DNA from: Cymbomonas tetramitiformis
Taxonomy: Eukaryota; Chlorophyta; Pyramimonadophyceae; Pyramimonadales; Pyramimonadaceae
Length of the DNA: 64,000 bases
Assembly (NCBI GenBank): GCA_001247695.2
Contig: LGRX02003699.1
Coordinates: 1-64,000 of the forward strand
Reading direction: 5' to 3'
Every line of letters begins with the position of its first letter. Positions within the stretch are counted from its first letter, which is position 1. Positions 1-20,130 of the stretch are shown piece after piece. The notes beneath the pieces are model-generated. The model was given only the letters and a program-made list of their open reading frames with translations. It ran no database searches and was not told where the DNA came from. A program made the position numbers and the translations under genes.

Positions 1-413
1 AAGCACAAGAGCAAGAAAAACGGCTAAGTATAAAACGCAGGAGTACTCAGTACGGAGTACAGTAGGACCGATCAGAATGATGTTGATGTGAGGTGCCTAG
101 ACTGTTGTACGGAGTACTCAGTACAGTTGAGTTATGGAAAGAGTTCCTGAATGTATAAGAACTCTAAGAGTAACCCGTTTCGGGGAGATGAACTGAACTG
201 AAAAGTAAAACATAAAAGTAAAGAGCCGTAACTGCTGTATATTGTGTATTGAAAGCATGCACTGATAGCAAAAGCATAACTATTAAGATTTACGAAACCG
301 AAGTCTTGTAGTTGACCAATCGTAAGCATACCTCGTGCGGTCGTTTAATAAGTGTAGAATAGTATAAGTCCGAAACCGTAAAGAAGAGAAGAAGTCAAGT
401 GTGGACTCCTACA
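1..413 (+). repeat. 5' LTR of the gypsy element (truncated by window edge)
   Basis: Matches 13994-14406 base for base as far as I can read. It contains a TATA-like tract near 28-37 and two copies of the palindrome GTACTCAGTAC (around 43-53 and 113-123) set in partly inverted order. The 3' end is CCTACA at 408-413. Confidence 0.93.
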
Positions 414-1009
414 AAATGGTAATTAGTTCGTGTTTTCACGTTGCTTCCTTGTCTTTCTTGCGCAAATTCTGATCAACCCGCCCCGCCTTGTGCGATTAGT
501 TAGCGAGTACTTGCACTACGAAATCGAGAATGCCTGTGCTCTCGTTCTTGTTGCGCGGTGGTGTGTGGGATTGATGGTTCGAGGTTGCTTGGAGCCGCGT
601 CGGTGTGGAGAAATCTAGCTCGACGACAATCTTTTAAGGTGCGAGCGTTGCCTTAGTCCTAGCACGCATACACGCATAGCACGCATATCCGTGCTTTTGG
701 ACTCGCAGGTGCGGGAAGCCCAAATCGCCTCCGTTTTTCGGCAATTCCGACCCTTCGCGGCGGAAGCGCTGCGCAAATTTTTCAATTTTGCGTAAGCCTT
801 TGCTGAAATTCGGGGTTGGTTCGGGGTTTCCCCTACCTTTAATTTAGCCTTCTAGTCCCCCCTATTCGGGAATCTCCGCGCTTCGGCCGGTGTGCTTACT
901 TGTGCTCGCGCGCGAGTGGCGTATTCCTGGGATCGGGTGCTAGTTGCCACGTGTGTCGTGTACACTTTCGGTTTTAGCTAAATTAGATCTCACGCATAGC
1001 ACGCATACT
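414..1009 (+). promoter_or_regulatory. gypsy 5' leader with candidate primer-binding site
   Basis: Untranslated leader between the LTR and gag. A TGG-initiated stretch starts at 417 (TGGTAATTAG), the expected place for a tRNA primer-binding site, but I do not recognise the tRNA; it is not the initiator-Met 3'-end type (TGGTATCAGAGC). The motif CACGCATAGCACGCATA occurs at about 661-688 and again at about 991-1008, just before the gag start, so the leader carries a short direct repeat of unknown role. Confidence 0.5.
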
Positions 1010-4000
1010 ATGCCCATGTATTCAGATGAAGAGGAATGCCTCGGTCGGTCGGGCCGGCGTGGGGGGGGTCGGGCCGGCGCCGCCCCCGGCTCAGCCGTGG
1101 GGTCCGGTCGGTCGGGGTCTCGCGCTGCGGGCCTGTCGGTCGGCCCAGGCTCTGGGGAGTTCTGGGGCGCGGCTGGCGGGTCAGACAGCCGGGATTGGCG
1201 CTCCCGTGAGAGGGGGGAGGGAGTGCGGCGTGCGCTTGCACGCCAATACGGCGGTGAAGCCCTCGAGGTTACACCGGCGCGCACGCCCCTGAGAGCCCCT
1301 CCAGGGTTGTCTTGTGGGCCCCCCAGGGCCTCGCCACCAAAAGCCCCTTCACCAGCGAGAGTCAGTGGGGCTGAGCCAGTGTCCGAGCTCGCATTGAGCT
1401 CGGCGCTACGGCAGCCGGCGCGCCGGAAGCGTGCGTCGCCCGAGGCTCCGGCACCGCCGGCAGCAGGCGCCGGCTCCGGGTCGGACTCGGACCGCTCTGC
1501 TAAGGGGTTGAACCCCTCGGCAGCTCCCTTCTCCCCACTCCCTGCGTCCAGCAGGAGTGCGAGTAGTAGGGTCGTCCGTCAGGAACCGACGTCGGGACCG
1601 GCAGCATCCTCCCTCTCTTCCCTCGTGGGGAGCGAGCAAGGGAATCTCATCAGTGCCCCAGGGCGCTTTGAGGTTTACCGAGCCAGTGACTGGAGTCCCC
1701 CGGCAGAAGGGGAGTCTGATGATGTCCGGCGCCCAGAGCAGCTAGACGTCGTCCAGTCACGGGGGCGCGAGTCTCGCATCCGGCCCAATCCGGCTTGGCG
1801 AGGAGAGCGACGTCAGTCCATGCTCGCATTGGCCCTCCGTCAATGGAGCACCTGGGCGCTGAATTCAGCGCAACGACGTGCGAGAGTCTCCCTGCCATCT
1901 CGTCAGCGCGCAACAGCGCGGCTTGCGTGGGTCGCATGGAGGGCCAGGACGGACCAGTCAGTGCATCAGCGCGAGCTCCAGCGCCTGGCATTCCAAGCGT
2001 GGAATGACGTCACCCAACAGGTCGCCCAACTTCGAGGCCTGTTTGACAAAGGCAGTCGGCGCCGGGTCGAGTCCTCTTTCGCAGCATGGCGCCAGCATGT
2101 CGTCCAGACACAGGGTCTGTGGCGCAGAGGCAGACGTCAAGCTGGAGCTGTCTTCATGGCATGGCACCAGCAGACGATGCTCGCCAAGGAGAGGAGCACC
2201 TGGTGGGTTGGAGCCCGGAGACACCGGATGACCCAGATGGGTAGGAGGTGTCTTCGCGAGTGGCGCCGGCTCCCCAGGACGACCCCAGTCAGCTCGGACT
2301 CGTCCCAGGGAACGAGTGCCCGCCGTCCGGTAAGGAAGGCGGGAACCTCATCCGGTGTCAGCTCTTGCTCGGATTCCGACCAGGAGTCTATGTGGCAGGA
2401 CATCCGTCGAGGCCTAAAGCGCCTGGGGAAAGACCACCCGCTGTCAGGGCTAATGTGGTTCCAGCTCAAGGACTATGGGCTCTCCGAGGACGGCGCTTAT
2501 CGCCTGGAGATCCACCAGCAGTCAGTCTCCGAGTCCAGGGTGTTGATGCAGCAAAAACGCGAGGACCCTCACAACTCCCTTGAGAGGTGTAGATTCTCTG
2601 TCTTTGCCATCAACGCCGGCAGACCAGGGGAGCTGGTACGCCAAGGGGCGGACCTCCAGGAGGTAAGGAGAGCGGTCGTCGCGGCCGTCAGAATGAGCGG
2701 CCGCACCCGGAAGTCACACAGGGGTCTTAGGAAGTCAGGTGCAGCGCCTCCGAGTTCCGCAGCCCCCGGTGGGAACTGGTCGAACCGGTTTGCTCCCCTC
2801 TCGTCCTCATCGGAGGAAGAGCATCCCGCGGAACGTCCGAGGCCCAGGACTCAGGCGCCTAAGCCGAGCGGCCCCAGTCGCCCGGTGCCTCGCACCCGGA
2901 AGCCCAGTCGAGCACCATCGGTCCCGCACCCCGGTCCGACTTCCTCAGGGAACACGTCGTCGTCCCCGGAGTCCACTTCGAGCAGGAACAGTCAGGACCT
3001 GCAAGAGCTGAAGGAAGCCTGGCAGAAGGAGTCGCAAGCTCGGGAGGCAGCTGCCGAGGCTCGCCTGGAACAGCTGTCTCGGCAACTCCAAGAGAGTCAA
3101 AGAGCTGCCGAGGAGCGCAGGATCTCCGATCAGCGCGCTGCCGAGGAACGCAGGGTCTCCGAGCGACGCGCTGTCGAAGAGCGCTGGGCTGCAGACCGGC
3201 TGGCCGCAGAAGCCCGGGAGACTGCCCGGCAGTTGGCTGTCGACGAGAGCGTCGCTCAGCAGGTAGCCGCCGAGGAGCGGCGAGCGGCAGCCGAGGCCCA
3301 GCTGGAGGAAAGGCTGCAGGCGGTCATAGAGTCACAAGTCCAAAGGCTCGCCCTGGTTCAGGCCTCGCCCCCAGGGCCCGTGGAGTCAGACGCTCGGGGG
3401 CCCTCAGCGGCAGCGTCGAGTCCGGTTCAGGAGACGCCCATCTCCCGAGAGGGACATGAGCTGGTAGAGCCGGCTTCCGTCGTCACCTGTGACGTCGAGA
3501 ACCGGGACGTTCAAAGCCCTCCGGAGGAGTCGCGCGCGGACGTGACAGCGTCTCCACCGCACTCATGGGACTTTATTTCCCTTCCTATACAGGTCTGCGA
3601 CGCCCTCCGGAAGCACGTGGTCGGGTATGCCACCTCGGGGATCGATGCCCAGCGCCTGTTTTACGACGCTGCTCGTAGGTATCGCACCCTTGGTCAGGTC
3701 GCCGGGTGCTTACACCCTTCCAACCAGATCAGGCAGTGCCTGAAGACAAAGTTCTCGGACGAGGACAGGGTCCTCGGGGCCCAGGTGGTTCACAGTCTCA
3801 CGACGGCCTTGGCGTCCGTCGCAGAGAGCTGCGCTCGCTGTGGGTGCGGGCACGAGGAGAGCCCGGTGCGTATGTGGGCGTGTCGGGCGAGCGCTAAGAG
3901 AAGTGTGGTGGCGTTCATGAAAAAGGTGTACCTGCCGGTGTGTGGGTTTTGCGCCGCGGACGTGTGGCCCGGTGCTTTCGACCACTTTCCGGCTGTGATG

Positions 4001-5318
4001 CCACCTCCGATTCCTAAGGCGGCAGACACACCGGGAGACGGGGGGGGGATGGTCCCTCAACTGGAGCACTCGGAGCCAAACGAGCTTTCGGAGATGCCCG
4101 GTGCCGGCGGTCATGGTGGTCCTGGTGGCTCGGGGAGCGGTGACCCTGGAGGGCCGGGAGGCCCGGGGAGTCCGGGCGAGGACCCTGGCGGCGATGGCGA
4201 AGACGGGGATGGCGACAGCCAGTTCACCTTCTCGTCTTCCTCTCGTTACAGGGAGCCCCGGAGCCATTACAGTCGTAAGGACGAGCAGCACGCTCTCAAG
4301 GAGGCCACCAGAGCCATGGAGAAGGCGGTGGACAAATACCACACAGAGGTGGAGGGGTCGTCCCACGTCTTTGGTCGGCTCCTCCGATTTGTTCGGCAAG
4401 TCAGGGAGGTTCGGGAACTGGAGCCGGTGCGCTACGCCATGGAGATGGCGCGTCTGGGACCACTAGAGAGCGGGGGTGAGGAGAAGGTGTTGTCGGACCA
4501 CTCCCTGCTGTCAGAAGTGGCCAGACACTGCTTCGGCAAACTCAGCTCCGAGTACCGCGAGCTTTCCTCGGTGTTGACGGAGGCTCGGGAAGGTAAGAAC
4601 CTCTCCTTGGACGTCATAGTGGTTCCCTTGGCGCAACTGGTGATGCCCGACAAGGGGGAAATGGCGTCGATCGGTCCGTTCCTGCGTCGCGTGCGCCAAA
4701 GTCAGGACAGACAGACTCGCACGGTCCGCGAGTTCTGGGACGGGGGTGCACCTTGCTCACGACATCGTGAGCATGCTGGCTGCCCACGAGCTCACCTCTC
4801 CGGTGCCGGAAGAGGAGCTGCTGGAGATATTCCTTACGGGATTGATACCGGAGATAAGGAGGAAGGTCTTCCTTATAGCCGAGAGGAAAGGCGCTTCGGT
4901 CCCGACTCTGAGCCGGACGGCCAGTAAAGGCCGCCACGAACTCCTGACTTGGGCCATAGAGGCTGAGCGGGAGTTGCGGCAGAGCCAGGATAAGACGAGC
5001 CGCTCGGTCCAGCTGCTGGCCCACGTAGATGTCACGGAGGAGCTGCTAGCCATGGCGACATCCGCCGGCGCTCCGACACCCACAGGGCAACGACTCGGCT
5101 CCCCAGAGTACGAGGGCTGCCGTCTGTGCAAGAGCATGGACCATTATGCCCGCGACTGTCCGCAGGCGAGCCAGCGCCCGAAGGAGTGGGCCAAGTGCCT
5201 CCTGGAGGACACCCTGGCGTTAATAGGGGACGAGTCGGTGGAGGAAGCTTTGGCTGCCATCGGTTTGGATTTTGTCCAGGAGGACGCTCCCCAGCCCGGG
5301 GCGTCCTCCCCGCAGTAA
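1010..5318 (+). CDS. gag: giant Gag polyprotein with CCHC zinc knuckle (one frame discontinuity)
   Basis: Structural protein of the gypsy element. The frame is open from 944, but I prefer the ATG at 1010 (MPMYSDEEE), just after the leader repeat. Order of segments: Gly/Ser/Arg-rich N-terminus; helical Trp repeats (1819-2275) of the kind x-F/L-x-x-W; Arg/Ser-rich linker; long Ala/Glu/Arg coiled coil (about 3000-3350); a Cys-rich patch (about 3820-3960, CARCGCG and CGFC); a Gly/Pro-rich collagen-like stretch (about 4100-4215); then the conventional Gag core (about 4260-5050) and a CX2CX4HX4C knuckle (CRLCKSMDHYARDC, about 5118-5160). At the five-G run 4742-4746 the reading must move forward one base: the first frame degenerates and ends at 4927, whereas the second continues the Gag core, carries the knuckle and stops with TAA at 5316. 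Over 1430 residues is several times a normal Gag. Confidence 0.85.
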
Positions 5319-5383
5319 AGGGCGCGGGCCCCGTCACTGCGGGGTCAGGGGGACAAAAGGGCCCCGCGCCGGCGTCCACAGCG

Positions 5384-5815
5384 ATGCAGGTGCTGCATGA
5401 TAGGTGGAGAAGGTGTGGGAGACACCTTAGTGGCAGCGCCAGGCGCCACCTCAAGAGCCAGAGTCGAGTCGAGAGGTATGAGCAGGAAGGTTTAGACATG
5501 CTAGCCGCCACCCGCACGGAAAGCCCAGAGCCTCCTGAGCGGGAACCGGTCGAGCAGCGCGTCCAAAGAGAGCAGGCAAACTTCTGGAAGTCCGCCAGAA
5601 CCCCAGCGACCGCCTCAGTTCCGCGTCCCGAGGAGCCGTGGGAGCTGCTCTGTTGGATCACCGGTGCGGACACCCGGGGTAAAAGCCGGTCGAGCCACAC
5701 AGTTGAGCCACGGGCAGTCTACCAACAGCACCTCGCTGGAGAACCAGGGGTCGGATGTTGCGAGAGTTCGCGGGCACTGGAAGTTCAGAGCTCAGCGTTT
5801 ACCCCCCAGAGTTAG
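5384..5815 (+). CDS. possible N-terminal segment of Pol in another frame
   Basis: Starting at the ATG at 5384, 66 bp after the gag stop, this frame reads a Glu/Arg-rich, protein-like sequence down to a stop near 5815. The main Pol frame is closed by stops at about 5490-5505 and opens only after them, so the two frames overlap for some 300 bp. If Pol starts at 5384, a one-base forward shift is needed between about 5740 and 5800; a four-G run lies near 5747. Otherwise Pol simply starts inside the main frame and this is a fortuitous open frame. I cannot decide from sequence alone. Confidence 0.35.
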   Translation: MQVLHDRWRRCGRHLSGSARRHLKSQSRVERYEQEGLDMLAATRTESPEPPEREPVEQRVQREQANFWKSARTPATASVPRPEEPWELLCWITGADTRGKSRSSHTVEPRAVYQQHLAGEPGVGCCESSRALEVQSSAFTPQS

Positions 5816-8800
5816 GAAAGCCTTTCAGGCCCAGCAGCCAAGTGCTCGCCTGCGTTCCGCCATCAGGGCGCTAGAAAGGTATCTAAAGCTGGAAGAGTCA
5901 GAGGTCCGGCCGGTCAAGTCCCTTGCGCTTTGGAGGGCAGGGCAAAGGCGGATGAGCCAGAAGCTTGGACCCACGACTAGTAAGCCCCAGTTGAATCGAG
6001 AAGAGTTAGATAAGCGCTTGAAGCGGCTCGTCAGGGTGCGCGAGTTCAATCGCCGACGCAAAGCCATCTTGGATCAGGAGTTCGGACGGTTTGTTCGCGT
6101 TGCCAAACCCAAGCCTGCCGAGGGAGAAGAACTCTCACCACCAGAGAGAACTTCAAAGCCCAGTCGGCCGTGGTTGACCCGAAGCAGGGCTCGCCAGGCT
6201 TTGGGCCCGAAACGCAGACCATGGCTGACTCCTGAAGACAAGGCGCTTCGAACCTCTCGATTGCAGCGCAGGTACGAGTTGGAGGGTAGGGACCCGGCTT
6301 CTACCTCAACAGAACGCCATGCGGACTTCCACGCCTTCGTAAAGGAGGAGTTGGAAAGGGAGAATAGGGAACTTCAGCAAGACAATGAGCTGATGCACCG
6401 GGACGAGCAAGTCAGAAAGCACATAGCGGCTAAACTGGCTGCAGCGTCAGTCCAAGTCGCGGTGTCCCCCCCAGACTTCCCAGAGCGCAGCGCAGTTCAG
6501 AAAGCAGTCGCCATCGGCCTGCTAGCGGACGCGTGTACTTACTGCCTCCCGGACTGTGACTCCGACGCAGAAACGTCAGTCACCCGCCTGGACTGCATAA
6601 TGCAGGACGGCGATATCAGTCCGAGCTGGTGTGAGTCCCTGGCAGCGGTGTCCTCGATGGGAGCGCGCCCGAGGAGTTTCGACAGGCACAGTCGCACACC
6701 GACGTTGTTGCTGTTTTGGGCCTGGATTGCGGGCGTCAGAGTCAAGGTGTTAGTGGATTCGGGAGCATCCACCAATATCATCGCAAAGAGTACACTGCAG
6801 AGGCTCTCCGGCGTCAAGCCGGTGCGCCACGAGCAAGCCATGCGAGTTCGAGTGGCTGACGGCACCACATATGATGCTAATTCCTGCATCAGGCCCAAGC
6901 TCCTTGCTGAGACGTCGAAGGGGTCTTACGGCCAGCAGGTTGAGCTTCGGGTAATGCCACTCGACCTCAAGGTGGATGTCATCCTGGGGGGTCCTTGGCT
7001 GGCGAACCTTTCCCCGGTTACGCTGGATTATAAGAACTGGGGTTCGGTCCGGTTCACCAAGGGCAGGGAAGAGGTCGTCATCACCGGCTGTTCGCCGGGG
7101 TCACCGGACCCCAGTCGGTCCAAGGACACAGCAATGGCACTGGTACAGGGAGTCCTTTTGAGCCAACGTCGGGCTCGCCGGGACCTGCGGACCCTCCGAA
7201 ACAGAGAGGAGCAGGCTTTCGTCGTCTACCTCGGCCCCGATGGGACTTTTGGCGCGTTGGCCTGCAACAAGGGGGGGGGAGACTCCGACGAAGATTCCCC
7301 CAACGATGTCGTAGCAGGCCTAGCGTCAGAACCCTCCTCCGGGTCCGAGGATGGTGAAGTCAGCGTGCGTCCCAGCGCAGCGGTGCCGGACGGAGCTGAG
7401 GAGTCTGAGGGGCCGGGAGGGTTGGTCTCGGACAGTTCCGAGTCCGGCTACAGTGACGTGGAAGGAGCGTGTCATTTGCAGAGAGTAGGGGCGGTGGTCG
7501 AGGATATTAGGCCACAGGGATTTGCGAGCACGGTCGACGAGGCCGGGGATCACCCTGACCCTCTCAGCTTTTTCGCTAGCAAACAGGAGGCGAACGGAGC
7601 ATTTGCGTTGCTTCCGCCAGCGGTGCGTAGGCAGGCGATAGAGGATCACGCGGCCGGGAAGCCACCCACCTGGCACGCGCAGGCAGCCGCGGCGCTCCAG
7701 CAGGGCCGGGGTCTGGTCGCGGAGCGACGACCCCGAGCACGGCGTAAGCGAGTGCGTTGGCGTGACCAGGTCGCAGCAGTCGGTCAGCCTGGTGCTGAAA
7801 GTGGCCCCTCCACCGAGCAGCCACCGGGACCAAAAGTCCCCACTGTCCCGAGTCCTCAGAGTCAGAAGTCGCGAGCCTCGGCACCAGTCCCGCCGCCAGC
7901 TCCGCAGACCACAGACCCGCCGGTACCGGCCGCCCCGCCAGGTACTACCTCGCCGCCAGCCCCACAGACTGCTCAGGCCTCCCCGGAACCGCCGGAGGAC
8001 GAGATAGACGAGACGGTGTCGCCGGAAATCTGGCAGCAGCTTAGGGATCTGGAAAAGGAGTTCGCAGATGTCATTTGCACAGAGCTGCCGGAATCAGTCC
8101 AGTCAAGGGAATTCAAGTCCGGCGTCCGGCTCAGGCCAGATTGGAATGGGAACGCCCTGCACCGGCGAGGGTACAAGCTGTCGCAGGAGGAGTTGCGGCA
8201 ACTCCGGCAACAGCTAGATGAGCTCTTAGCCAAAGGGTACATACGACCCTCGGCCTCTCCGTGGGGCTGCCCTGTGCTGATGGTCCCCAAGCCGAGTAAT
8301 CCCAAGGAGTTGCGTCTAGTCATTGACTACAGACAGATCAATGAGATCACAGTCAAGGACAAGTACCCCCTCCCGGATGTCCAGAGTCTCCTAGATGATC
8401 TACAAGGGGCTACCGTCTTCTCTACGATGGATGCCCTTTGGGGGTTTTGGCAGGTCCCTATGAAAGCAGAGGACGTGGAGAAAACCGCAATGACTACGCA
8501 CTTTGGAGCGTACGAGTGGTTGGTCATGCCTATGGGATTGTCAAACTCCCCAAGTACCTGGCAAAGGATGATGCAACAGTACCTCGGGCACCTACCCTTT
8601 TGCAGAGTATTTGTAGATGACATCATGATTTTCTCAGCTGAGGTTCCGGGTAAGAGCGCCCATGAGGTACACCTCGACCACCTCCGCCAGGTCCTGGAGG
8701 CATGCCGAAAGAATTCAGTCTACCTCAAAAAGTCGAAAGTCAAATTGTGCAAGCGATCAGTCCGGTTCCTAGGGCATGTGGTGGATCGGGATGGATGTCG

Positions 8801-11800
8801 TCCACAGCAGGATAAGGTTGCGTCGGTACGCGATTGGCCAGACCTAGAAACTGTCACACACGTGCGACAGTTTCTGGGCATGTGTGGCTTCTACCGGAGG
8901 TACATCCAGAACTTCGCAGATATCGCGTACCCGTTGACCCGCCTCACCAAATCCGGCGTGGACTGGACCTGGGGCGAGAATGAAAAGGCAGCATTTAAAC
9001 AGCTAAAAACTGCCTTGATCTCCTCCCCAGCCTTGGCCCTACCCGATCAAAAGGGTGCAGCAGACGGTTCCAGACCCTTTTTTGTGCAGACAGATGCCAG
9101 TGGAGTAGCACTAGGGGGTGTACTCATGCAGGATCAGGGACGAGGCTTACAGCCCTTGGCCTTTGAAAGCCGGCAGTTCTCCAGCGCAGAGCAGAACTAT
9201 CACGCTGGGGAACGGGAGCTTTGTACCATCCATCATTGCACCACGGTCACCTGGAGACATTATCTGATTTTCACATCATTTAAGCTCATGGGAGACCATA
9301 AACCCCTTCAGTGGCGCTTCGCCCCAGCTAGGGAGCTCAGCCGACGTCAGGCTCGCTGGTACGAGGACTTGGTAGAGGTAGGAGTCCATCAGATGGAGCA
9401 CGTGCCAGGGCGCTGTTTGGTAGTACCAGACGCGCAGTCCCGGCGACCAGACTATCAGGAAATGTCAGCCAGAGAAGGGTTGAAGGAAAAAGGGATTGTG
9501 GATCGCGCCACGGATGGGCCCAGAGACTCCGCACCGGCAGGCAAGGGGTCCGAAGAGGACGAGGATCCTACCTCTGGCCTCGGGGCAGTGGATTGCACCA
9601 CCGATGGATCTGATGGACCCGAGTACTCTGAGCCGAAAGGCAAGAGATGCGAAGGGGACGAGGATCCCACATCTGTCTTAGGCGCCACCTTCGAGTATAG
9701 TGATTCCGAGGACGAGTCCTTCCCTCCCACCAGTCCGGCACCGGTCATTGGTGAGCTCACCCATCTGAATGGGCTCACGTGGGTAGAGTCGCCGGCCCTT
9801 TGGCTGGACGCAGCTGCCACCCTAGCAGTAGGCGAGAAGTCCTTGAGGGATGCCGAATCGCTAGCAGTCATGACCAGAGCAGACCGAGCTAGGGAACAGG
9901 CCACAGCAGAAGTCCAGAGTCACCCGAAGTTCCCCCACCCTGAGGCCCAGAGTCATCCAAAGGCGGCCGGAAAGGTACCTGAGCCCGTTAAGCCCCCAGA
10001 AAGTAGCTCCCACTACGACCAGGTCGTAGATCGCCAGGACTGGAAGCTGATCAGGGAGCGCTTTGAGGAGATAGCAGCCCAGTACGGGGTGTTTGACGTT
10101 GACGCGTGTTGCAACTCCATGGGCGTTAACCGGCAGGTTGACACCTATTGGACCGATTGCTTGAAGGAAAAGTGGCGCGGGAAACACGTTTGGTGCAACC
10201 CCCCTTACACGAAGGATTCAGACTTGATAGAAAGAATTCTTCGGCATTTCCTTGCTGAGTGGCGCGCCGATCCGGAAAACACCTCGGCGATGTTCCTTCT
10301 GCCAGACTATGGCGCCCCCTGGAGGCGGTTGATTCACCCCAAGTATGAGCTTCATCCGGTCAAAGTCTTTGACACGAAGGACGAAAAAGGTCGTCCCAAC
10401 CACCTCTTCGAGTCCCCTGATGGAGGTCGACCCCCGCTGCGCTGGCCGGTCCTTCTGGTGTGGGCCCCAGCAGCCAGCAGGGCAAAGCCCCGAGCGCCGC
10501 CTGCGCGAAAGGACAGTGAGGCAGAACCCGACGAGCCTTTAGTCACTACAGGGGTTGCAGCAAGGGCCAGGGCAGCATCAGGCCCACTGAAGGCTGATGA
10601 GTTCGTCCGCGCCTTGCAAGCGGAATACGAACGCAGCCGGTACCTCAGCTCGTTGAAGGAGGAACTGGTCGCAGCCCCACATCAGAGGACAGACACATTT
10701 CGCATGGTAGACGACATGATATGGCGAGTGGCAGAAGGGCGGTATCAGCTAGTGCTAGCTCAGGATTCCCCCCTCAGAGAGCTGGTGATGCGCGAAGCAC
10801 ACGAGTCCCCGGCAGCAGGGCACACAGGAAGGGATAAGACACTGGACAGAGTATCCCGTCGCTTTTGGTGGCCACGCATGAGCAAGGATGTCACCGACTG
10901 GTGCAAATCCTGCGTTGTGTGCCAACAGACCCGGCCACGCAACGGGTATCCAGACGGTCAGCTCAACCCCCTGCAAGTCCCAGTAAGACTGTGGCAAGTG
11001 GTTAGTATCGACTTCGTCACTGGGCTGCCCCGCACAGAGCGAGGGTACGACGCGTTTGCTACCTTCACGGACAAGTTGTCCAAGATGGTGCACGTAGTCC
11101 CCATGCTTTACGCTGACAGCTCAGCTGCACAGATCGCGCGCATGTATTTCGACCAAGTGTGGCGTTTGCACGGCGCTCCCATGAAGATCGTCCGTGATCG
11201 GGACTCCCGCTTCAGGGATGAGATGCATCTCGAGCTACATCGGTTGATGGGAGTCCAGGTTGCCTCTACCACGCCGTACCACCCACAAGGTGATGGGCAG
11301 GCAGAGCACACAAACCACACGGTCGAACGCATGTTGCGCGCGTACGTCGACGCCAACCAGCACGATTGGGATTTATGGTGTACCCCGGTCGAGTACGCCA
11401 TTAATGACTCTCGTTCCGCCGTCACGGGATTCACCCCTTTTGAACTGACGTATGGTCACGCTCCGGCCTCTCAGCTGGACTTCTTCGTGGAGGCAGCACT
11501 TGCATCACGGAGAGGCCGAGCTAAGGGGGGGAGGGGCGCAGCAGTAAAAAAGGGTACGGCCCACGAGACAGCCCGCCAGTTTGTTCGCCAGTTGCAGCTC
11601 GCTAGGGAGAAGCTGCTCTTAGCTCAGCAGCAACAGATCGCCCAGTACGACGCGCGTCACAGGTCCAGGAGTTACGCAGTAGGCGATGAGGTTTGGGTGG
11701 ATGCCACGCACCTCACTCAGCCGGGCGACCGCGGGTTGCACAAGAAGTTGCTTAAGAAGCGCCTTGGGCCCCTTCGGGTGCTGGAAGTCTTTCACAGCGA

Positions 11801-13259
11801 CAGGCAGATGGCCCTTCCCGCGAGCGATAGAGGCGCACCGTCGGCCTATAGGTTGCAGCCGCCTAAGCAGTGGAAAGTGCACGATGTGTTTACCGTGGAC
11901 CGGCTTTCGCCAGTAGAGTCGGGCAGCCGCTTCGTTGAGAGAGCTAAGGAGATTCCCCCTCCTCCGTTGGACGTCAGCGGGCGCAAGGAAACCCACGTCG
12001 AGAGGGTGGAGCGTTCGCGCACGCGCCAGCGCCAGGGCAGGAGGTGGACAGAGTACCTGGTCAAGTGGACAGGAATGCCCCGCAGTGAGAACGAGTGGAA
12101 GACCCGAGAGGATCTGGAGTGGGACGGAGCCGGCAGGCCCGGTGTTCCCAACCGAGCGTTGTTGGAGTTTGAGAGGATCGAGGCTAAGAGAGTGGAGCGA
12201 GAGAAGCTTAGGGTCCGTAAGAGACGCGACGAGTCCGCAGGAGCGGTATGGACCACGCTATCGGAGGAGCTCAAGGTAGACGGAGCAATGCCATGGGTGC
12301 CAGAGGAGAGGTTTGATGAGGAAGTAGGAACTTTCGCGAGAGTATCTGCTCAGAGCACCCTGCCGCCAGTCAACGGAGCCGCAGCACTTGAGAAGGAGCC
12401 AGTCGGCCAGTCTAAGATTCTTGTATTGTTTTGTGGGACCGGGTCAGTCGAGAGGCAGTTCACTAAGCAATTTCCCAACAGCGAAGTAGTTGCTGTAGAC
12501 ATTCAGCCCAAGTGGGGCCCCACACATTGCGAGGATATCATGCGATGGGACTACCGACAGTTCAGACCAGGACACTTCGACGTAGTCTGGGCTAGCCCAC
12601 CTTGCACAGAGTACAGCCAAGCGAAGACGGTAGGCATCCGAGATTTGCGTGCTGCGGACAGGCGAGTTCGTAGGACATTGGAGATCATCCGGTACTTGAG
12701 GCCCGAAGCATACTTCATTGAGAACCCGAGGGGAAGAGAGCCCCACGGGTTGCACACGCGTCGCTGCATGAGCAATCTACCAGCTCCGCACCTCGTCACG
12801 TACTGCAAATACGGGACCGCATACAGGAAGCCCACGCACATCTGGACCAACGTTCCGTTGCGCACACCCTTGCGAGTATGCGATTCCGATACGCCTTGCG
12901 AGTTCTTCCGGCAGCACGGTAGGCACGAGAAAGTAGCGCAAGGAGGGCGCGCGATGAGAGCCGGAGGTGTGTTCGCGAAGGGCATGGGAGCGCGAGAGAA
13001 TTTGTATGGGATTCCGTCAGCACTGTTAAAACAGCTTTTCCACAACCTGACCCTACATGAAGAGGTGCATGCGTTCCTGTCTGAACTGCTTGTCAGGGAG
13101 GATCTGAGCGAGATGAGCGTTTTAGTCCAGTCAGCTGTTGTTGAGAGTGACCCGCCCGAGTTTGAGCCGGAACCGATAGCGTTAGCGGGAGTGCGAGCGG
13201 AGGTGACGATCATACCTGAGGGCGGATGGGAATCTGACGCGAGTGGTCTTAGCGATTGA
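5664..13259 (+). CDS. pol: Pol polyprotein: PR-RT-RNaseH-Dam-IN-chromo-C5MTase
   Basis: About 2531 codons in one frame. The first in-frame start at 5664 is GTG, so the true start is unsettled. Aspartic protease: VDSGAS with Asp at 6756, later ILGGPWL near 6981. Reverse transcriptase about 8100-8900: FSTMD and the catalytic FVDD at 8610-8621 (more often YVDD). RNase H about 9085-9460: TDAS Asp at 9093, Glu at 9216, Asp at 9294, DAQS near 9435. An inserted Dam-like domain (10006-10480). Integrase about 10785-11480: His-His and CX2C zinc-binding region, then Asp 11010, Asp 11196 and Glu 11304, an exact D-x35-E. Chromodomain about 11988-12180. C-terminal C5-methyltransferase-like domain 12414-13070. 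All catalytic residues I can check are intact, so the element may be active. A long Arg/Glu-rich region of unknown role precedes the protease. Confidence 0.93.
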   Translation: MRTPGVKAGRATQLSHGQSTNSTSLENQGSDVARVRGHWKFRAQRLPPRVRKAFQAQQPSARLRSAIRALERYLKLEESEVRPVKSLALWRAGQRRMSQKLGPTTSKPQLNREELDKRLKRLVRVREFNRRRKAILDQEFGRFVRVAKPKPAEGEELSPPERTSKPSRPWLTRSRARQALGPKRRPWLTPEDKALRTSRLQRRYELEGRDPASTSTERHADFHAFVKEELERENRELQQDNELMHRDEQVRKHIAAKLAAASVQVAVSPPDFPERSAVQKAVAIGLLADACTYCLPDCDSDAETSVTRLDCIMQDGDISPSWCESLAAVSSMGARPRSFDRHSRTPTLLLFWAWIAGVRVKVLVDSGASTNIIAKSTLQRLSGVKPVRHEQAMRVRVADGTTYDANSCIRPKLLAETSKGSYGQQVELRVMPLDLKVDVILGGPWLANLSPVTLDYKNWGSVRFTKGREEVVITGCSPGSPDPSRSKDTAMALVQGVLLSQRRARRDLRTLRNREEQAFVVYLGPDGTFGALACNKGGGDSDEDSPNDVVAGLASEPSSGSEDGEVSVRPSAAVPDGAEESEGPGGLVSDSSESGYSDVEGACHLQRVGAVVEDIRPQGFASTVDEAGDHPDPLSFFASKQEANGAFALLPPAVRRQAIEDHAAGKPPTWHAQAAAALQQGRGLVAERRPRARRKRVRWRDQVAAVGQPGAESGPSTEQPPGPKVPTVPSPQSQKSRASAPVPPPAPQTTDPPVPAAPPGTTSPPAPQTAQASPEPPEDEIDETVSPEIWQQLRDLEKEFADVICTELPESVQSREFKSGVRLRPDWNGNALHRRGYKLSQEELRQLRQQLDELLAKGYIRPSASPWGCPVLMVPKPSNPKELRLVIDYRQINEITVKDKYPLPDVQSLLDDLQGATVFSTMDALWGFWQVPMKAEDVEKTAMTTHFGAYEWLVMPMGLSNSPSTWQRMMQQYLGHLPFCRVFVDDIMIFSAEVPGKSAHEVHLDHLRQVLEACRKNSVYLKKSKVKLCKRSVRFLGHVVDRDGCRPQQDKVASVRDWPDLETVTHVRQFLGMCGFYRRYIQNFADIAYPLTRLTKSGVDWTWGENEKAAFKQLKTALISSPALALPDQKGAADGSRPFFVQTDASGVALGGVLMQDQGRGLQPLAFESRQFSSAEQNYHAGERELCTIHHCTTVTWRHYLIFTSFKLMGDHKPLQWRFAPARELSRRQARWYEDLVEVGVHQMEHVPGRCLVVPDAQSRRPDYQEMSAREGLKEKGIVDRATDGPRDSAPAGKGSEEDEDPTSGLGAVDCTTDGSDGPEYSEPKGKRCEGDEDPTSVLGATFEYSDSEDESFPPTSPAPVIGELTHLNGLTWVESPALWLDAAATLAVGEKSLRDAESLAVMTRADRAREQATAEVQSHPKFPHPEAQSHPKAAGKVPEPVKPPESSSHYDQVVDRQDWKLIRERFEEIAAQYGVFDVDACCNSMGVNRQVDTYWTDCLKEKWRGKHVWCNPPYTKDSDLIERILRHFLAEWRADPENTSAMFLLPDYGAPWRRLIHPKYELHPVKVFDTKDEKGRPNHLFESPDGGRPPLRWPVLLVWAPAASRAKPRAPPARKDSEAEPDEPLVTTGVAARARAASGPLKADEFVRALQAEYERSRYLSSLKEELVAAPHQRTDTFRMVDDMIWRVAEGRYQLVLAQDSPLRELVMREAHESPAAGHTGRDKTLDRVSRRFWWPRMSKDVTDWCKSCVVCQQTRPRNGYPDGQLNPLQVPVRLWQVVSIDFVTGLPRTERGYDAFATFTDKLSKMVHVVPMLYADSSAAQIARMYFDQVWRLHGAPMKIVRDRDSRFRDEMHLELHRLMGVQVASTTPYHPQGDGQAEHTNHTVERMLRAYVDANQHDWDLWCTPVEYAINDSRSAVTGFTPFELTYGHAPASQLDFFVEAALASRRGRAKGGRGAAVKKGTAHETARQFVRQLQLAREKLLLAQQQQIAQYDARHRSRSYAVGDEVWVDATHLTQPGDRGLHKKLLKKRLGPLRVLEVFHSDRQMALPASDRGAPSAYRLQPPKQWKVHDVFTVDRLSPVESGSRFVERAKEIPPPPLDVSGRKETHVERVERSRTRQRQGRRWTEYLVKWTGMPRSENEWKTREDLEWDGAGRPGVPNRALLEFERIEAKRVEREKLRVRKRRDESAGAVWTTLSEELKVDGAMPWVPEERFDEEVGTFARVSAQSTLPPVNGAAALEKEPVGQSKILVLFCGTGSVERQFTKQFPNSEVVAVDIQPKWGPTHCEDIMRWDYRQFRPGHFDVVWASPPCTEYSQAKTVGIRDLRAADRRVRRTLEIIRYLRPEAYFIENPRGREPHGLHTRRCMSNLPAPHLVTYCKYGTAYRKPTHIWTNVPLRTPLRVCDSDTPCEFFRQHGRHEKVAQGGRAMRAGGVFAKGMGARENLYGIPSALLKQLFHNLTLHEEVHAFLSELLVREDLSEMSVLVQSAVVESDPPEFEPEPIALAGVRAEVTIIPEGGWESDASGLSD
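10006..10480 (+). other. Dam-like N6-adenine DNA methyltransferase domain inside Pol
   Basis: Domain between RNase H and integrase in the Pol frame. It reads D-W-K near the start, then FDVDAC, an YWTDCL segment, and HVWCNPPY with NPPY at 10197-10208, followed by a helix and a terminal LLVWAP strand. An NPPY motif IV after an F-D-x-D-A motif is the layout of the phage-type DNA N-6-adenine-methyltransferase (Dam, PF05869-like) family, which methylates N6 of adenine with S-adenosylmethionine. Related domains are established in DIRS-type retrotransposons. A copy embedded in a Ty3/gypsy Pol is unusual. Activity and sequence specificity are not predictable from this sequence. Confidence 0.82.
11988..12180 (+). 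other. chromodomain in Pol, downstream of integrase
   Basis: The segment reads V-E-R-V plus a basic insert, then YLVKWTG, then ENEWKTREDL, the core pattern of a chromodomain (beta strand, Y-x-V-K-W, x-N-x-W, short helix). Chromodomains at the C-terminus of integrase define chromoviruses and are known to steer integration by binding methylated histone H3. One aromatic-cage position appears to be retained in YLVKW. Here it is unusually followed by another 360 residues instead of ending the protein. Confidence 0.85.
12414..13070 (+). other. C5-cytosine-methyltransferase-like domain at Pol C-terminus
   Basis: Rossmann-type methyltransferase with motifs in the canonical C5 order: VLFCGTGS (motif I, SAM binding), VVAVDIQ (motif II), SPPCTEYS with Pro-Pro-Cys at 12597-12605 (motif IV, catalytic Cys at 12603), FIENP near 12714-12728 (motif VI; usual form ENV), then YG-x-x-YRKPTHIWTN (motif VIII-like) and NLYGIPSALLKQLF (motif X-like) near 13000-13040. 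The SPPC and ENP variants resemble those I associate with viral and phage cytosine-methyltransferase-like proteins rather than with DNMT1/DNMT3. Cytosine methyltransferases recruited into retrotransposons have been described in some algae and dinoflagellates. Cytosine-C5 activity is inferred, not shown. Confidence 0.8.
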
Positions 13260-13282
13260 GAGCGTTGGGGAGCGTCGGGAAG

Positions 13283-13592
13283 AGCGGTGGCTCCGGCCTT
13301 GGCGAGACCAGGCGGCAGGTGAGAACCTGGGTAATCCATCCGAGAGAGCAGTGGCTCTAGCCTCGGCACAGCCAGGCAACAGGTGGAAATCTGTATAATC
13401 CATTTGAGCAGTGGCTCTAAGCCTTGGTATGACCAAGCGGCAGGTGAGAACCTGGGTAATCTATCCAAGTGAGCAGTGGCTCTAGCCTCGGTGCGACCAG
13501 GCAACAGGTGGAAATCTGTATAATCCATTTCACGAGAGCATTGGCTCCGGACCTGGCACGACCGGGCAGCAGTTGGAGATCTGGGTAAAAGC
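13283..13592 (+). repeat. 60-65-bp tandem repeat in gypsy 3' untranslated region
   Basis: Five units begin AGCGGTGGCT or AGCAGTGGCT at about 13283, 13347, 13407, 13472 and 13537. They alternate in type: units 1 and 3 contain GGCAGGTGAGAACCTGGGTAAT and units 2 and 4 contain ACAGGTGGAAATCTGTATAAT, so the higher-order period is about 125 bp. A further decayed unit lies near 13860-13920. Units of the first type contain a small palindrome (CAGGT/ACCTG). Function unknown; it lies between the pol stop and the polypurine tract. Confidence 0.8.
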
Positions 13593-13963
13593 TCTAGCAC
13601 TCCGAGGAGGCGGTGAAGGTTTAAAACCTTTCCTCCGGGCCGGCATCCCGAGAACTGTCAGGTAATTGGCAAACCTATTGTCATCCCCTGTAAGTGTACC
13701 GTGTTGGGAGGTTTAAAACCTTGAGCGTGGTAATGGATGTGAAACCTTGAGCCTTGGGGGAGCCTGGTAGTGCAGATGGCAGACCGGTGAGAGGCCGACC
13801 CTTGTGCTTAAGAGGTCGATCTCCTTATTGCGGTGTGTCTTGGGAAGTGTAATGTCATCCCAGACAACAGGCGGCTGAGACCTGTATAATCATCCTGAGC
13901 AACAGTAGAAGATCTGTATAAAAACTTTACTGGTCCGACGTGGTCAGCGTGGACGTGACCTTC

Positions 13964-13980
13964 CCTAAGGGGGGGGGAGT
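13964..13980 (+). promoter_or_regulatory. polypurine tract of gypsy element
   Basis: The run CTAAGGGGGGGGGAGT directly abuts the TG of the 3' LTR at 13981, the required position for plus-strand priming. Confidence 0.8.
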
Positions 13981-14406
13981 TGTGCTAGGAGGCAAGCACA
14001 AGAGCAAGAAAAACGGCTAAGTATAAAACGCAGGAGTACTCAGTACGGAGTACAGTAGGACCGATCAGAATGATGTTGATGTGAGGTGCCTAGACTGTTG
14101 TACGGAGTACTCAGTACAGTTGAGTTATGGAAAGAGTTCCTGAATGTATAAGAACTCTAAGAGTAACCCGTTTCGGGGAGATGAACTGAACTGAAAAGTA
14201 AAACATAAAAGTAAAGAGCCGTAACTGCTGTATATTGTGTATTGAAAGCATGCACTGATAGCAAAAGCATAACTATTAAGATTTACGAAACCGAAGTCTT
14301 GTAGTTGACCAATCGTAAGCATACCTCGTGCGGTCGTTTAATAAGTGTAGAATAGTATAAGTCCGAAACCGTAAAGAAGAGAAGAAGTCAAGTGTGGACT
14401 CCTACA
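13981..14406 (+). repeat. 3' LTR of the gypsy element
   Basis: Complete 426-bp LTR, TGTGCTAGG...CCTACA. The sequence from 13994 on matches the start of the window base for base as far as I can read. Confidence 0.95.
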
Positions 14407-16849: not shown

Positions 16850-17690
16850 TGTTTTAAGTGAGCTTTTGTAGCACGTGTGAAGTCTGGTGGCGGTGTGGGG
16901 TTTTTTTCATGTGTGAAATATGGTGTTTCATGTGATTTTCTTGCATGTGTGAAATAGGGCGGTTTACGTGCAGATTTTTGGGCACGTGTGAAATATTGTG
17001 TTTTGTGTGTACATATGGTGGCTGCAGTGTTTTGTGTCGATCTTTTAATGTGTTTTTTTTGTTTCGATTTTTTGTAGGTGTGGAGTATGGTGTTTTGTGC
17101 ACGTGTTTATTAGTGTGAAATAATGTTGAGTAAAGAACTTGTTATTAAAAACAAAGTAGTCTCAAACCAGAATACGATGATAATAAAATTACGGATAAAA
17201 AACTTGAAGCTGTTATGAATCTAAGAAAAAATATTTAAAAAAGGTGTGTGGGGTTTTTGTTTCGAGTTTTTGCATGTGGGGTTTTTGTTTCGAATTTTTG
17301 TAGGTGGGGAGTATGGTGTTTTGTGCACGTTTTTAATAGTGTGAAATAATGGGGAGTAAAAAACTTGTTATTAAAAACATAGTAATCTAAAGCCAAAATA
17401 ATGATAATAATAATAAAATGAATAAAAAAGTTTAAGCTGTTACGCAACTGAGAAAAAAATAAAAATTTGTGTGTGGGATTTTTGTTTCGTTTTTTTTTAT
17501 GTGGTTTTTTGTTATTGGCTTTTTTTGTATGTGTGGAGAATGGTGTTTCGTGCACGCGTTTATTAGTGTGAAATAATGGGGAGTAAAAAACTTGTTATTA
17601 AAAACATAGTAATCTGAAGCCAAAATAATAATAATAATAAAATGAATAAAAAAGTTGAAGCTGTTATGAAGCTGAAATGAAGTTGCTCCC
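16850..17690. repeat. AT-rich repeat family, three long units
   Basis: Short GTGTGAAATATGGTG units (about 16860-17000) lead into three longer units beginning TTTTTGTAGGTGTGGAG or close variants (about 17070, 17290 and 17525). Each contains GTGCACG, TTATTAGTGTGAAATAATG, AAAACTTGTTATTAAAAAC and an ATAATAATAAAATGAATAAAAAAG tail. Spacing is about 220-235 bp. Open frames here are only low-complexity translations. Confidence 0.8.
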
Positions 17691-17719
17691 ATTTATGTGG
17701 CAGCTATCACTATATTTAG

Positions 17720-18930
17720 CAAGCCTGAAACGTTCTAACGGAGATGGAGCTCTCTTCAAAGATTTTTAAAGCTAGCTTTGGACTTTTCGGCGTCGCAAAG
17801 TTTGCTTCGGCTTTTATGGATTAGATGTAGCTTGCGTTAAGATCTTGAAAGATCTGTGAAGCATGAAGATCTTTGAAGCAAGCATTCTAAAATAGATGAG
17901 CTTGCTTGCTTCAAAGATTTCTAAAGCTCTTTGGCCTTTCCGGCGTCGCAAAGTTTGCTTCAGCTTTTAAGGACTTGTTGAAGCTTGCGCAAAGGCCTTC
18001 AAAGATCTTTGCGCGAAGAGCTTTGAAGCAAACATTCTAAAATAGATGAGCTCGCTTGCTTCAAAGATCTTTAAAGCTCTTTGGACTTTCCGGCGTCACA
18101 AAGTTTGCTTCAGCTTTTAAGGACTGGTTGAAGCTTGCGCAAACGCCTTCAAACATCTTTGCGCAAAGAGCTTTGAAGCAAACATTCTAAAATAGATGAA
18201 CTCGCTTGCTTCAAAGATCTTTAAAGCTCTTTGGCCTTTCCGGCGTCGCAAAGTTTGCTTCAGCTTTTAAGGACTGGTTGACGCTTGAAGCGCAAAGGCC
18301 TTCAAAGATCTTTGCGCAAAGAGCTTTGAAACAAACATTCTAAAATAGATGAGCTTGCTTGCTTCAAAGATCTTTAAAGCTCTTTGGCCTTTCCGGCGTC
18401 GCAAAGCTTGCTTCAGCTTTTAAGGACTGGTTGACGCTTGAAGCGCAAAGGCCTTCAAAGATCTTTGCGCAAAGAGCTTTGAAACAAACATTCTAAAATA
18501 GATGAGCTTGCTTGCTTCAAAGATCTTTAAAGCTCTTTGGACTTTCCGGCGTCACAAAGCTTGCTTCAGCTTTTAAGGACTGGTTGAAGCTTGCGCAAAG
18601 GCCTTCAATGATCTTTGCGCAAAGAGCTTTGAAGCAAACATTCTAAAATAGATGAGCTCGCTTGCTTCAAAGATCTTTAAAGCTCTTTGGACTTTCCGGC
18701 GTCACAAAGTTTGCTTCAGCTTTTAAGGACTGGTTGAAGCTTGCGCAAAGATTCTCAACGGTCTTTGCGCAAAGAGCTTTGAAGCAAACATTCTAAAATA
18801 GATGGAGCTTGCTTACTTGAAAGGTTTTTGAAGCTCTTTGGACTTTCTAGCGTCGCAAAGTTTACTTCAGCGTTTAAGGAATGAGTGAAGCTTGCGCAAA
18901 GATTCTCAACGGTCTTAATTGTTACGGTTT
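17720..18930. repeat. 150-bp satellite array
   Basis: About eight head-to-tail units. The landmark AAAATAGATGAGCT recurs near 17895, 18045, 18195, 18348, 18501, 18651 and 18801, giving periods of 150, 150, 153, 153, 150 and 150. Units contain TTCCGGCGTCGCAAAG and GATCTTTGCGCAAAGAGC, with a GCGCAAAG...CTTTGCGC inverted motif. Inner units are nearly identical and the edge units more diverged, typical of array homogenisation. Confidence 0.92.
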
Positions 18931-18939
18931 CCTCATTAA

Positions 18940-19790: not shown

Positions 19791-20130
19791 GAAACAGGCA
19801 CTTCTGGACAGTTTTGCTTTACATTCTAGCCTTTTCTTCCAGAAAGCACATTAATGCGGAAACAGGCACTTCTGGACAGTTTTGCTTTACATTCTAGCCT
19901 TTTCTTCTAGAAAGCACATTAATGCGGAAACAGGCCCTTCAGGGCGGTCTCGCTCTACATTTCGGTTTTTTCTTACAAAAAGCACATTAACCCGAAAACA
20001 TGGAGCTTTTGGCAGTTTTGCTTCACAGTTTGGCATCTTCTTTCAGAAAGCACGTCAATGTGAAAACATGAAGCTTTTGACAATTTTGCTTTACATTTTG
20101 GCTTTTTTCCCTTTGAGAGCACATTAATGC
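19784..20130. repeat. about 65-bp repeat derived from the 136-bp unit
   Basis: Units begin AGCACATTAATGCGGAAAC and continue with CTTCTGGACAGTTTTGCTTTACATT. The first three are nearly identical and later ones decay. The shared AGCACATTAATGCG block suggests the array arose from half a unit of the preceding satellite. Confidence 0.8.

What the first reader, a model, noticed from the sequence alone, without database searches (positions are those of the whole stretch)
9985..13259. One Pol with two DNA-methylation writers and one histone reader
An adenine writer, a chromodomain and a cytosine writer flank or follow integrase in a single ORF of an apparently young element. A plausible, untested idea is that the integration complex marks the new copy (or target chromatin) at once, either to hide from or to mimic host silencing. 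I know of no described element with this combination.
Basis: inference. Interest (0 to 1): 0.95.

Follow-up and report, generated by a model that had tools for sequence, protein, structure and literature searches.

The report
Jumping gene carrying two DNA-methylating enzymes
A very young, high-copy retrotransposon of the green alga Cymbomonas carries, in the same protein as its copying and inserting enzymes, two phage-type enzymes that look able to methylate DNA on adenine and on cytosine; evolution has kept both, so it is a natural test of whether jumping genes chemically mark their own new copies.

Summary
Window 1-14406 is a Ty3/gypsy LTR retrotransposon of Cymbomonas tetramitiformis. Its Pol ORF (5505-13259) runs PR-RT-RNaseH-Dam-IN-chromodomain-C5 methyltransferase. 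Both methyltransferases are of phage type and keep their catalytic motifs. The arrangement is not a one-off: on an RT tree 44 of 44 rows of one clade carry Dam and 34 of 44 carry C5. Both are inherited with RT and under purifying selection, among near-identical copies (7 nonsynonymous, 12 synonymous sites, p=0.004) and between two families with saturated synonymous sites. At least 150 copies exist; some insertions are very recent.

Qualifications: the chromodomain keeps 1 of 3 methyl-lysine cage aromatics, so "histone reader" is doubtful; the Dam motif is lost in 8 of 54 domains, while the C5 cysteine is kept in 42 of 42.

That the enzymes act, and on the element's own cDNA, is inference. Single-methyltransferase retroelements are published; I found no described dual-writer element in seven searches of open papers.

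The parts
1..413 (+). 5' LTR, lacking its first 13 bases because the contig begins inside it
   Evidence: identical to 13994-14406 over all 413 bases
944..4927 (+). long upstream ORF, 1327 aa, Gag by position
   Evidence: open frame; no Pfam match, so Gag is inference from position
5115..5165 (+). CCHC zinc knuckle (nucleocapsid-like), in ORF 4644-5318
   Evidence: Pfam zf-CCHC E 1.7e-4
5505..13259 (+). Pol ORF, 2584 aa
   Evidence: other copies have open frames of up to 2760 aa around the same RT
6723..7001 (+). aspartic protease
   Evidence: PF13650 E 8.7e-7
8283..8780 (+). reverse transcriptase
   Evidence: PF00078 E 3e-30
8970..9374 (+). RNase H
   Evidence: PF17917/PF17919 E about 1e-25
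9999..10481 (+). Dam-type adenine methyltransferase domain with NPPY motif
   Evidence: PF05869, motif table, AlphaFold2 model mean pLDDT 89.8
10767..11285 (+). integrase: H2C2 zinc finger and rve core
   Evidence: PF17921 E 1.6e-23; rve weak, below cut-off
11682..11915 (+). integrase C-terminal SH3-like domain
   Evidence: PF24626, below cut-off
11994..12119 (+). chromodomain with 1 of 3 cage aromatics (T-W-M)
   Evidence: PF00385 E 1.8e-7; cage comparison
12396..13070 (+). phage-type C5 cytosine methyltransferase domain with SPPC and ENP motifs
   Evidence: PF00145, PHROG 757 in 13 of 13 aligned domains, motifs, AlphaFold2 model mean pLDDT 85.9
13967..13979 (+). polypurine tract next to the 3' LTR
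   Evidence: read by eye in the sequence printed
13981..14406 (+). 3' LTR, 426 bp, TG...CA

Best explanation
This is an active or very recently active Ty3/gypsy retrotransposon of Cymbomonas. It belongs to a clade whose Pol has captured two phage-type DNA methyltransferases: a Dam-type adenine enzyme between RNase H and integrase, and a C5-type cytosine enzyme after the integrase chromodomain. SHOWN: architecture, motifs, copy number, youth, shared inheritance with RT, and purifying selection on both enzymes. INFERRED: because both are made as parts of Pol they are packaged with RT and integrase, and after protease cutting they methylate the element's own double-stranded cDNA in the particle or pre-integration complex. 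The new copy would then reach the genome already carrying host-like base marks, which would hide it from recognition as foreign, protect the cDNA, or set its chromatin state on arrival. The cytosine enzyme is probably the core function; the adenine enzyme is useful but replaceable in some relatives.
For: Domains and order. Catalytic cysteine in 42 of 42 C5 domains (those scoring at least 100 bits) and NPP[YFW] in 46 of 54 Dam domains (at least 60 bits). RT-tree clade: 44 of 44 rows with Dam, 34 of 44 with C5. RT-Dam r=0.87 and RT-C5 r=0.88 over 32 full members, 0 of 500 permutations as high. Within-family omega of Dam 0.25, C5 0.28, integrase 0.27, linkers and tail 0.42. Between two families of one genome: pS 0.69-0.93, pN 0.081 Dam, 0.199 C5, 0.086 RT. 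At least 150 copies; LTR pairs 0/413, 0/378, 2/384, 7/425 mismatches. Precedent: de Mendoza et al. 2018 (PMC5890265, passages seen) propose cDNA methylation for DIRS-borne DNMTs able to methylate CG de novo.
Against: No activity or methylation data. No significant excess of CpG transitions in young copies (18 of 64 against 22.5% expected, p=0.18; smaller sample 10 of 32, p=0.16), so no sign that new copies are more heavily CpG-methylated. Dam motif lost in 8 of 54 domains, so the adenine step cannot be essential throughout. No C5 match in P0048/P0049. For C5 alone the within-family test is not significant (3 to 5 sites, p=0.07), and C5 evolves faster than Dam between the two Cymbomonas families (pN 0.199 against 0.081). 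Among solved structures the best profile matches of the C5 domain are Dnmt2-type enzymes, some named tRNA methyltransferases. The relatives were found with a query that contains Dam and C5, which favours relatives that have them.
Confidence: 0.45

Rival explanations
1. The methyltransferases act after or at integration on the target chromatin or on older copies in trans, so that new insertions are quickly silenced or tolerated (self-restraint), with the chromodomain guiding them.
For: C5 directly follows the chromodomain; a chromodomain-like match is present in 38 of 44 rows of the clade (labels), five of the other six ending before or around that place; relatives P0026, P0027 and P0031 carry a PHD finger, in P0026 placed between Dam and integrase.
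Against: The window chromodomain has only 1 of 3 cage aromatics. The family has burst to at least 150 near-identical copies, which does not look like self-restraint. No significant CpG decay in copies.
Confidence: 0.18
2. The C5 domain, and perhaps Dam, methylates RNA: the primer tRNA, the genomic RNA or RNA-DNA hybrid, helping packaging or reverse transcription.
For: The three best solved matches of the C5 profile are Dnmt2-type chains, two of them named tRNA(C38) methyltransferases. De Mendoza et al. raise RNA methylation for LINE-borne DNMTs that did not methylate DNA de novo in yeast (PMC5890265, passage seen).
Against: The family matches are phage DNA methyltransferases (13 of 13 domains to PHROG 757; most of the matching phage records are annotated as DNA methylases). 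The catalytic cysteine of motif IV is also that of DNA C5 enzymes, so it does not decide.
Confidence: 0.12
3. The enzymes are a retroelement-borne defence or counter-defence against DNA viruses or other elements, as Morozov et al. 2019 speculated for accessory methylases.
For: Phage kinship of both domains. The host genome holds a giant-virus genome and many polinton-like viruses (PMC10675990, abstract and passages seen). Morozov et al. (PMC6338049, passages seen) propose it.
Against: Besides RNase H and integrase no nuclease was matched in the ORF. The domains are fixed parts of Pol, inherited with RT, which points to a role in the element's own cycle.
Confidence: 0.08
4. The domains are structural or passenger remnants without catalytic use.
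For: Dam motif degenerate in 8 of 54 domains.
Against: C5 cysteine kept in 42 of 42 domains; purifying selection on both; linkers of the same Pol diverge far more.
Confidence: 0.07

Closest known systems
KnitGypsy-Dnmt3 of Klebsormidium nitens (de Mendoza et al. 2018, PMC5890265, passages seen)
   Same: Gypsy element with a cytosine methyltransferase in Pol under purifying selection
   Different: There a Dnmt3-related enzyme, no adenine methyltransferase mentioned in the passages seen, and repeats arranged as in DIRS; here a short phage-type C5 domain plus a Dam domain between ordinary LTRs
DIRS retrotransposons with Dam-type methyltransferase (cited in PMC5890265, passages seen)
   Same: Retroelement polyprotein with a Dam-like adenine methyltransferase
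   Different: DIRS use a tyrosine recombinase; this element has an rve-type integrase, LTRs, a 5-bp duplication (one sister copy) and a second, cytosine, enzyme
SymbioDIRS-Dnmt3 and SymbioLINE-Dnmt of Symbiodinium (PMC5890265, passages seen)
   Same: Retroelement-borne cytosine methyltransferases in many copies; for the DIRS type cDNA methylation is proposed
   Different: Other element classes, no second methyltransferase mentioned in the passages seen, eukaryotic Dnmt3 type in the DIRS case
Chromoviruses, including green-algal Chlamyvir (PMC3350952, PMC10675990, passages seen)
   Same: Ty3/gypsy Pol with chromodomain after integrase
   Different: No methyltransferases mentioned in the passages seen; this chromodomain has lost the aromatics at the positions of Y24 and Y48
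Sola-type DNA transposon with ParB and DNA methyltransferase in Ectocarpus (PMC12477816, passages seen)
   Same: Algal transposon with a prokaryote-type methyltransferase thought to mark its own DNA
   Different: DNA transposon, separate gene, one methyltransferase

Membership tests
Ty3/gypsy LTR retrotransposon | paired LTRs with TG...CA ends | tested here: met
   426-bp 3' LTR, 413 of 413 bases shared with the cut 5' LTR
Ty3/gypsy LTR retrotransposon | short target-site duplication | tested here: met
   TGCAC on both sides of one sister copy (L059/L034), the one pair with both flanks at hand; not testable on the window copy, whose left flank is missing
Ty3/gypsy LTR retrotransposon | order PR-RT-RNaseH-IN in Pol | tested here: met
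Ty3/gypsy LTR retrotransposon | tRNA primer binding site | not tested
   a TGG follows the 5' LTR by eye; no tRNA was matched
Chromovirus | chromodomain at the C-terminal side of integrase | tested here: met
   PF00385 E 1.8e-7
Chromovirus | RT groups with named chromoviruses | tested here: inconclusive
   RT tree had no reference chromovirus by name
Methyl-lysine-reading chromodomain (group I) | three aromatic cage residues Y24, W45, Y48 | tested here: not met
   T-W-M in the window; all three aromatic in 12 of 46 (window and 45 relatives), against HP1 letters recalled from memory
Dam-type adenine methyltransferase (PF05869) | family match above cut-off and NPPY motif | tested here: met
   39.3 bits against 28.1; VWCNPPYT
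C5 cytosine methyltransferase (PF00145) | family match, PC motif with catalytic cysteine, ENP/ENV motif | tested here: met
   24.2 bits against 22 for the domain alone, 19.2 when the whole Pol is scanned; SPPC and ENP
Active DNA methyltransferase | enzymatic activity and sequence specificity | not testable with these tools
   no assay or modification calls available
DIRS retrotransposon | tyrosine recombinase instead of rve integrase | tested here: not met
   integrase H2C2 and rve found, no phage-integrase family among the 11 matches in Pol at E 0.01
KnitGypsy-Dnmt3 type | Dnmt3-class cytosine methyltransferase | tested here: inconclusive
   none of the 18 solved sequences matched by the C5 profile is named DNMT3; they are mainly Dnmt2 and DNMT1 types; no direct tree with Dnmt3 was made

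The most novel reading that the evidence does not exclude
A whole, previously undescribed clade of marine-protist retrotransposons writes both adenine and cytosine methylation on its own cDNA during replication, so that every new insertion arrives with a ready-made epigenetic state: a retroelement that installs its own two-base epigenome.
Probability: 0.3. Interest if true: 0.92.

Novelty: new variant of a known kind. Interest (0 to 1): 0.74.

Why it matters
Retroelements with one DNA methyltransferase are known, but what the enzyme does for the element is open. This family offers at least 150 near-identical, perhaps still mobile copies with two writers in a green alga with a published genome (Pyramimonadales), and relatives in which the active site or the domain of one writer is lost. 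Published nanopore work shows prasinophytes (Micromonas, Ostreococcus) with high 5mC, with 6mA in its place at the start of active genes (PMC12695648, passages seen). That makes 'do transposons mark their own new copies, and with which base?' directly testable by calling modifications on long reads over dated copies.

Tried and rejected
Considered and rejected: a chance match (both domains have complete motifs and dozens of relatives); fused neighbouring genes or an assembly artefact (the same order recurs in 32 other proteins on the RT tree, and in contig L065 of a marine metagenome bin); bacterial contamination (the C5 domain of CYMTET_43851 of Cymbomonas matches 100% in the same genome, and the window family's C5 is 99% identical to CYMTET_12107).

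Led nowhere: no relative of the C5 domain in viral contigs with the single sequence; with the profile 8 distant ones, 28-34%. The plain-sequence PDB search gave no plausible kin for either domain. The A>G over T>C excess in copies was not significant (p=0.07). C>T and G>A at CpG: 18 of 64 singleton changes in the larger sample and 10 of 32 in the smaller, against 22.5% of C and G sites (p=0.18 and 0.16). Fold comparison of the two models never ran. The Dam search of the own genome did not complete. No Rfam match in the window at the curated thresholds.

Limits: copy lists are capped (150 and 101 scored). Only 20 of the 101 RT-anchored copies were read, the next rows after the window itself with one skipped because it lay too near its contig's end. 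The omega test used 19 of these 20; L044 was dropped because it leaves the element inside Dam. Parts of L036 and L042 beyond insertions were masked. A first run that included L044 and one without the L036 mask gave misleadingly high values for C5 and are superseded. Because copies were picked by RT identity, RT omega is biased low. The relatives were found with a query that spans Dam to C5, so relatives without these domains may be under-represented in the tree. The 32 rows were chosen because they have all five domains.

Literature: searches cover only openly licensed PMC papers. The 2016 review on eukaryotic adenine methylation (PMC4738411) is not held. Repbase reports were not searchable, so prior description cannot be excluded.

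Full report
WHAT IS THERE. The contig begins inside an LTR. Bases 1-413 equal 13994-14406 without a difference, and the 3' LTR is 13981-14406 (426 bp, TG...CA) behind a polypurine tract. In a sister copy the same LTR is flanked by the duplication TGCAC (L059/L034). Between the LTRs lie a 1327-aa upstream ORF (Gag by position only), a CCHC zinc knuckle and a 2584-aa Pol ORF at 5505-13259. Pfam reads Pol as protease, RT, RNase H, Dam (PF05869), integrase zinc finger and core, SH3, chromodomain and C5 methylase (the core, SH3 and C5 matches are below their cut-offs there). The C5 match is above the cut-off when the domain is scanned alone (24.2 against 22 bits). Both methyltransferase domains give AlphaFold2 models of good confidence (mean pLDDT 85.9 and 89.8); no fold search could be run.

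HOST. The genome held for the window has 851.7 Mb. A C5 domain of the Cymbomonas protein CYMTET_43851 occurs in it at 100% identity, and a C-terminal piece of the window family is annotated as CYMTET_12107 at 99%. The host is therefore Cymbomonas tetramitiformis (Chlorophyta, Pyramimonadales).

AGE AND NUMBER. For the C5 domain 150 of 150 scored places are 99-100% identical in protein over all 225 residues and have no stop; 7965 candidates were seen, so 150 is a floor. For RT 101 places were scored, and by my count 34 of these 101 lie in an open frame of 2500 aa or more. LTR pairs differ at 0/413 (window), 0/378, 2/384 and 7/425 aligned sites (six 5' pieces were fetched and three made a usable pair; two of the three pieces lack the outer LTR end, and gaps are not counted). 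Of the 20 RT-anchored copies read, 17 run through to the 3' LTR, one of them (L039) with a local duplication near its 3' end; L036, L042 and L044 are interrupted or cut by other sequence. Frame breaks: Dam 1 of 19, C5 1 of 18, integrase 9 of 19, two of the nine being large insertions.

SELECTION. Among 19 copies plus the window, Dam has 4 nonsynonymous and 7 synonymous variable sites (omega 0.25, p=0.02), C5 3 and 5 (0.28, p=0.07), both together 7 and 12 (0.26, p=0.004), integrase 10 and 17 (0.27, p=0.0006), linkers and tail 20 and 22 (0.42). The numbers are small, so the deeper comparison matters more. Against the CYMTET_43851 family of the same genome, synonymous sites are saturated or nearly so (pS 0.69-0.93). 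Nonsynonymous difference is 0.081 for Dam, 0.086 for RT with RNase H, 0.054-0.073 for integrase, 0.116 for the chromodomain, 0.199 for C5 and 0.21-0.36 for linkers and tail. Both methyltransferases have thus been kept by selection for a long time, Dam as tightly as RT, C5 less tightly.

THE CLADE. A protein search with Pol residues 1480-2584 found 150 relatives and listed 120. Domain profiles built here find Dam in 53 of the 120, C5 in 44 and both in 41. On an RT tree of 112 rows a clade of 44 rows (SH-aLRT 100) contains the window. All 44 have Dam and 34 have C5 (33 after integrase, P0042 at the N-terminus). Of the 10 without a scored C5, six end or break off before or within it and four (P0048, P0049, P0053, P0055) form one branch; of these P0048 and P0049 reach more than 200 residues past the chromodomain without a C5 match, the other two end before that place. 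The query contained Dam and C5, so this sample leans towards relatives that have them. Over 32 members chosen for having all five domains, mean pairwise identity is RT 0.56, integrase 0.55, C5 0.51, Dam 0.42, chromodomain 0.41, linkers 0.17-0.31; distances of Dam and C5 follow those of RT (r 0.87 and 0.88). The catalytic cysteine of C5 is kept in 42 of 42 domains and ENP in 40 of 42 (one truncated, one ETP). Dam NPP[YFW] is kept in 46 of 54 (not in P0015, P0016, P0024, P0025, P0038, P0044, P0054, P0059). The cytosine writer is the more constant at the active site, the adenine writer the more dispensable.

ORIGIN AND RECURRENCE. Outside Pol-like proteins C5 is close to short methylases of metagenomes, to phage families (13 of 13 aligned domains match PHROG 757) and to phage methylases at 29-35% identity (11 records). 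Dam is closest to phage N-6-adenine methyltransferases, mostly at 25-35%. In the C5 tree (38 Pol-borne rows of 158) one group of 71 rows, support 93, holds 62 short proteins and two Pol-borne domains, P0054 and P0081; the other 36 Pol-borne rows lie outside it, mixed with longer fragments and a few short proteins, and P0064 stands alone on a very long branch. This suggests further, separate captures, but long branches make it unsure. P0054 has C5 before RT and Dam after integrase; P0026, P0027 and P0031 add a PHD finger. A contig binned as a Verrucomicrobiaceae genome (L065) carries another RNase H-Dam-integrase-chromodomain-C5 Pol, most likely a stray eukaryotic contig (its C5 was matched by tblastn, not by Pfam).

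THE CHROMODOMAIN. Compared with HP1 (letters recalled from memory), the three cage positions read T-W-M in the window, and all three are aromatic in 12 of 46. A published survey describes the loss of Y24 and Y48 in Galadriel-like chromodomains (PMC3350952, passages seen). The domain may still target chromatin, but recognition of methylated lysine should not be assumed.

HOW IT MOST LIKELY WORKS. Enzymes kept inside Pol beside RT and integrase are delivered with the cDNA; that placement, not a free gene, is the main argument that the substrate is the element's own cDNA (inference). De Mendoza et al. made the same proposal for DIRS-borne DNMTs (PMC5890265, passages seen). In prasinophytes 5mC is abundant and 6mA takes its place at the start of active genes (PMC12695648, passages seen). 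A new copy with host-like marks could pass as host DNA; adenine marks could even favour expression. I looked for a mutational footprint of CpG methylation in copies: 18 of 64 C>T or G>A singleton changes lie at CpG against 22.5% expected (p=0.18), 10 of 32 in the smaller sample (p=0.16). This neither supports nor excludes marking of such young DNA. Rivals are given with their odds.

KNOWN OR NEW. Single-methyltransferase retroelements are published: Dam in DIRS, Dnmt3 in a gypsy element of Klebsormidium. [quoted passage not shown] In seven searches of the open PMC library I found no element described with both enzymes in one Pol; most listed papers were seen as listings only. The long-read Cymbomonas genome paper (PMC10675990, passages seen) reports LTR elements as 15.3% of the assembly and notes a chromodomain-bearing pol; the word methyltransferase does not occur in its main text. 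I therefore call it a new variant of a known kind.

Noticed in passing
window 13281-13588: Imperfect tandem repeats (units of 64 and 125 bp) in the non-coding stretch between the C5 domain and the 3' LTR; a copy (L039) has a duplication of this stretch.
   Followed up: partly
window 17056-20136: Neighbouring satellite-like arrays (units 227, 150 and 136/68 bp) downstream of the element.
   Followed up: no
window 33316-33723, 39357-39576, 40506-40774, 42651-43483, 43774-44501: Further tandem arrays with units of 58, 30, 53, 44 and 52-54 bp; the long ORFs at 43.6-44.6 kb overlap one of them and are probably not genes; the one scanned (43592-44539) had no Pfam match.
   Followed up: partly
window 5318-5505: In the window copy the zinc-knuckle ORF ends at a stop (5316-5318) in the same reading frame as Pol; 33 of the other 100 scored copies have open frames of 2515-2760 aa around RT, most of them longer than the window's 2584.
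   Followed up: no
P0026, P0027, P0031: Relatives of the clade carry a PHD finger (in P0026 between Dam and integrase, residues 1137-1181), a second chromatin-reader type.
   Followed up: partly
P0054: A more distant gypsy Pol with both kinds of methyltransferase in swapped places (C5 before RT, Dam after integrase) plus a weak NUDIX match.
   Followed up: partly
P0162 and P0225: C5 relatives named by their source as Prorocentrum minimum (a dinoflagellate) and, from an identifier beginning Tetstr, probably the green alga Tetraselmis; P0162 falls beside Pol-borne C5 domains, so the clade may reach dinoflagellates.
   Followed up: no
L065 (NHEN01000032.1): A retrotransposon contig binned into a Verrucomicrobiaceae metagenome-assembled genome, most likely a contaminant of that bin; it has a second long ORF (4391-7864) without Pfam match.
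   Followed up: partly
L036, L042, L044: Copies interrupted or cut by other sequence near window 11474, 11752 and 10148.
   Followed up: no
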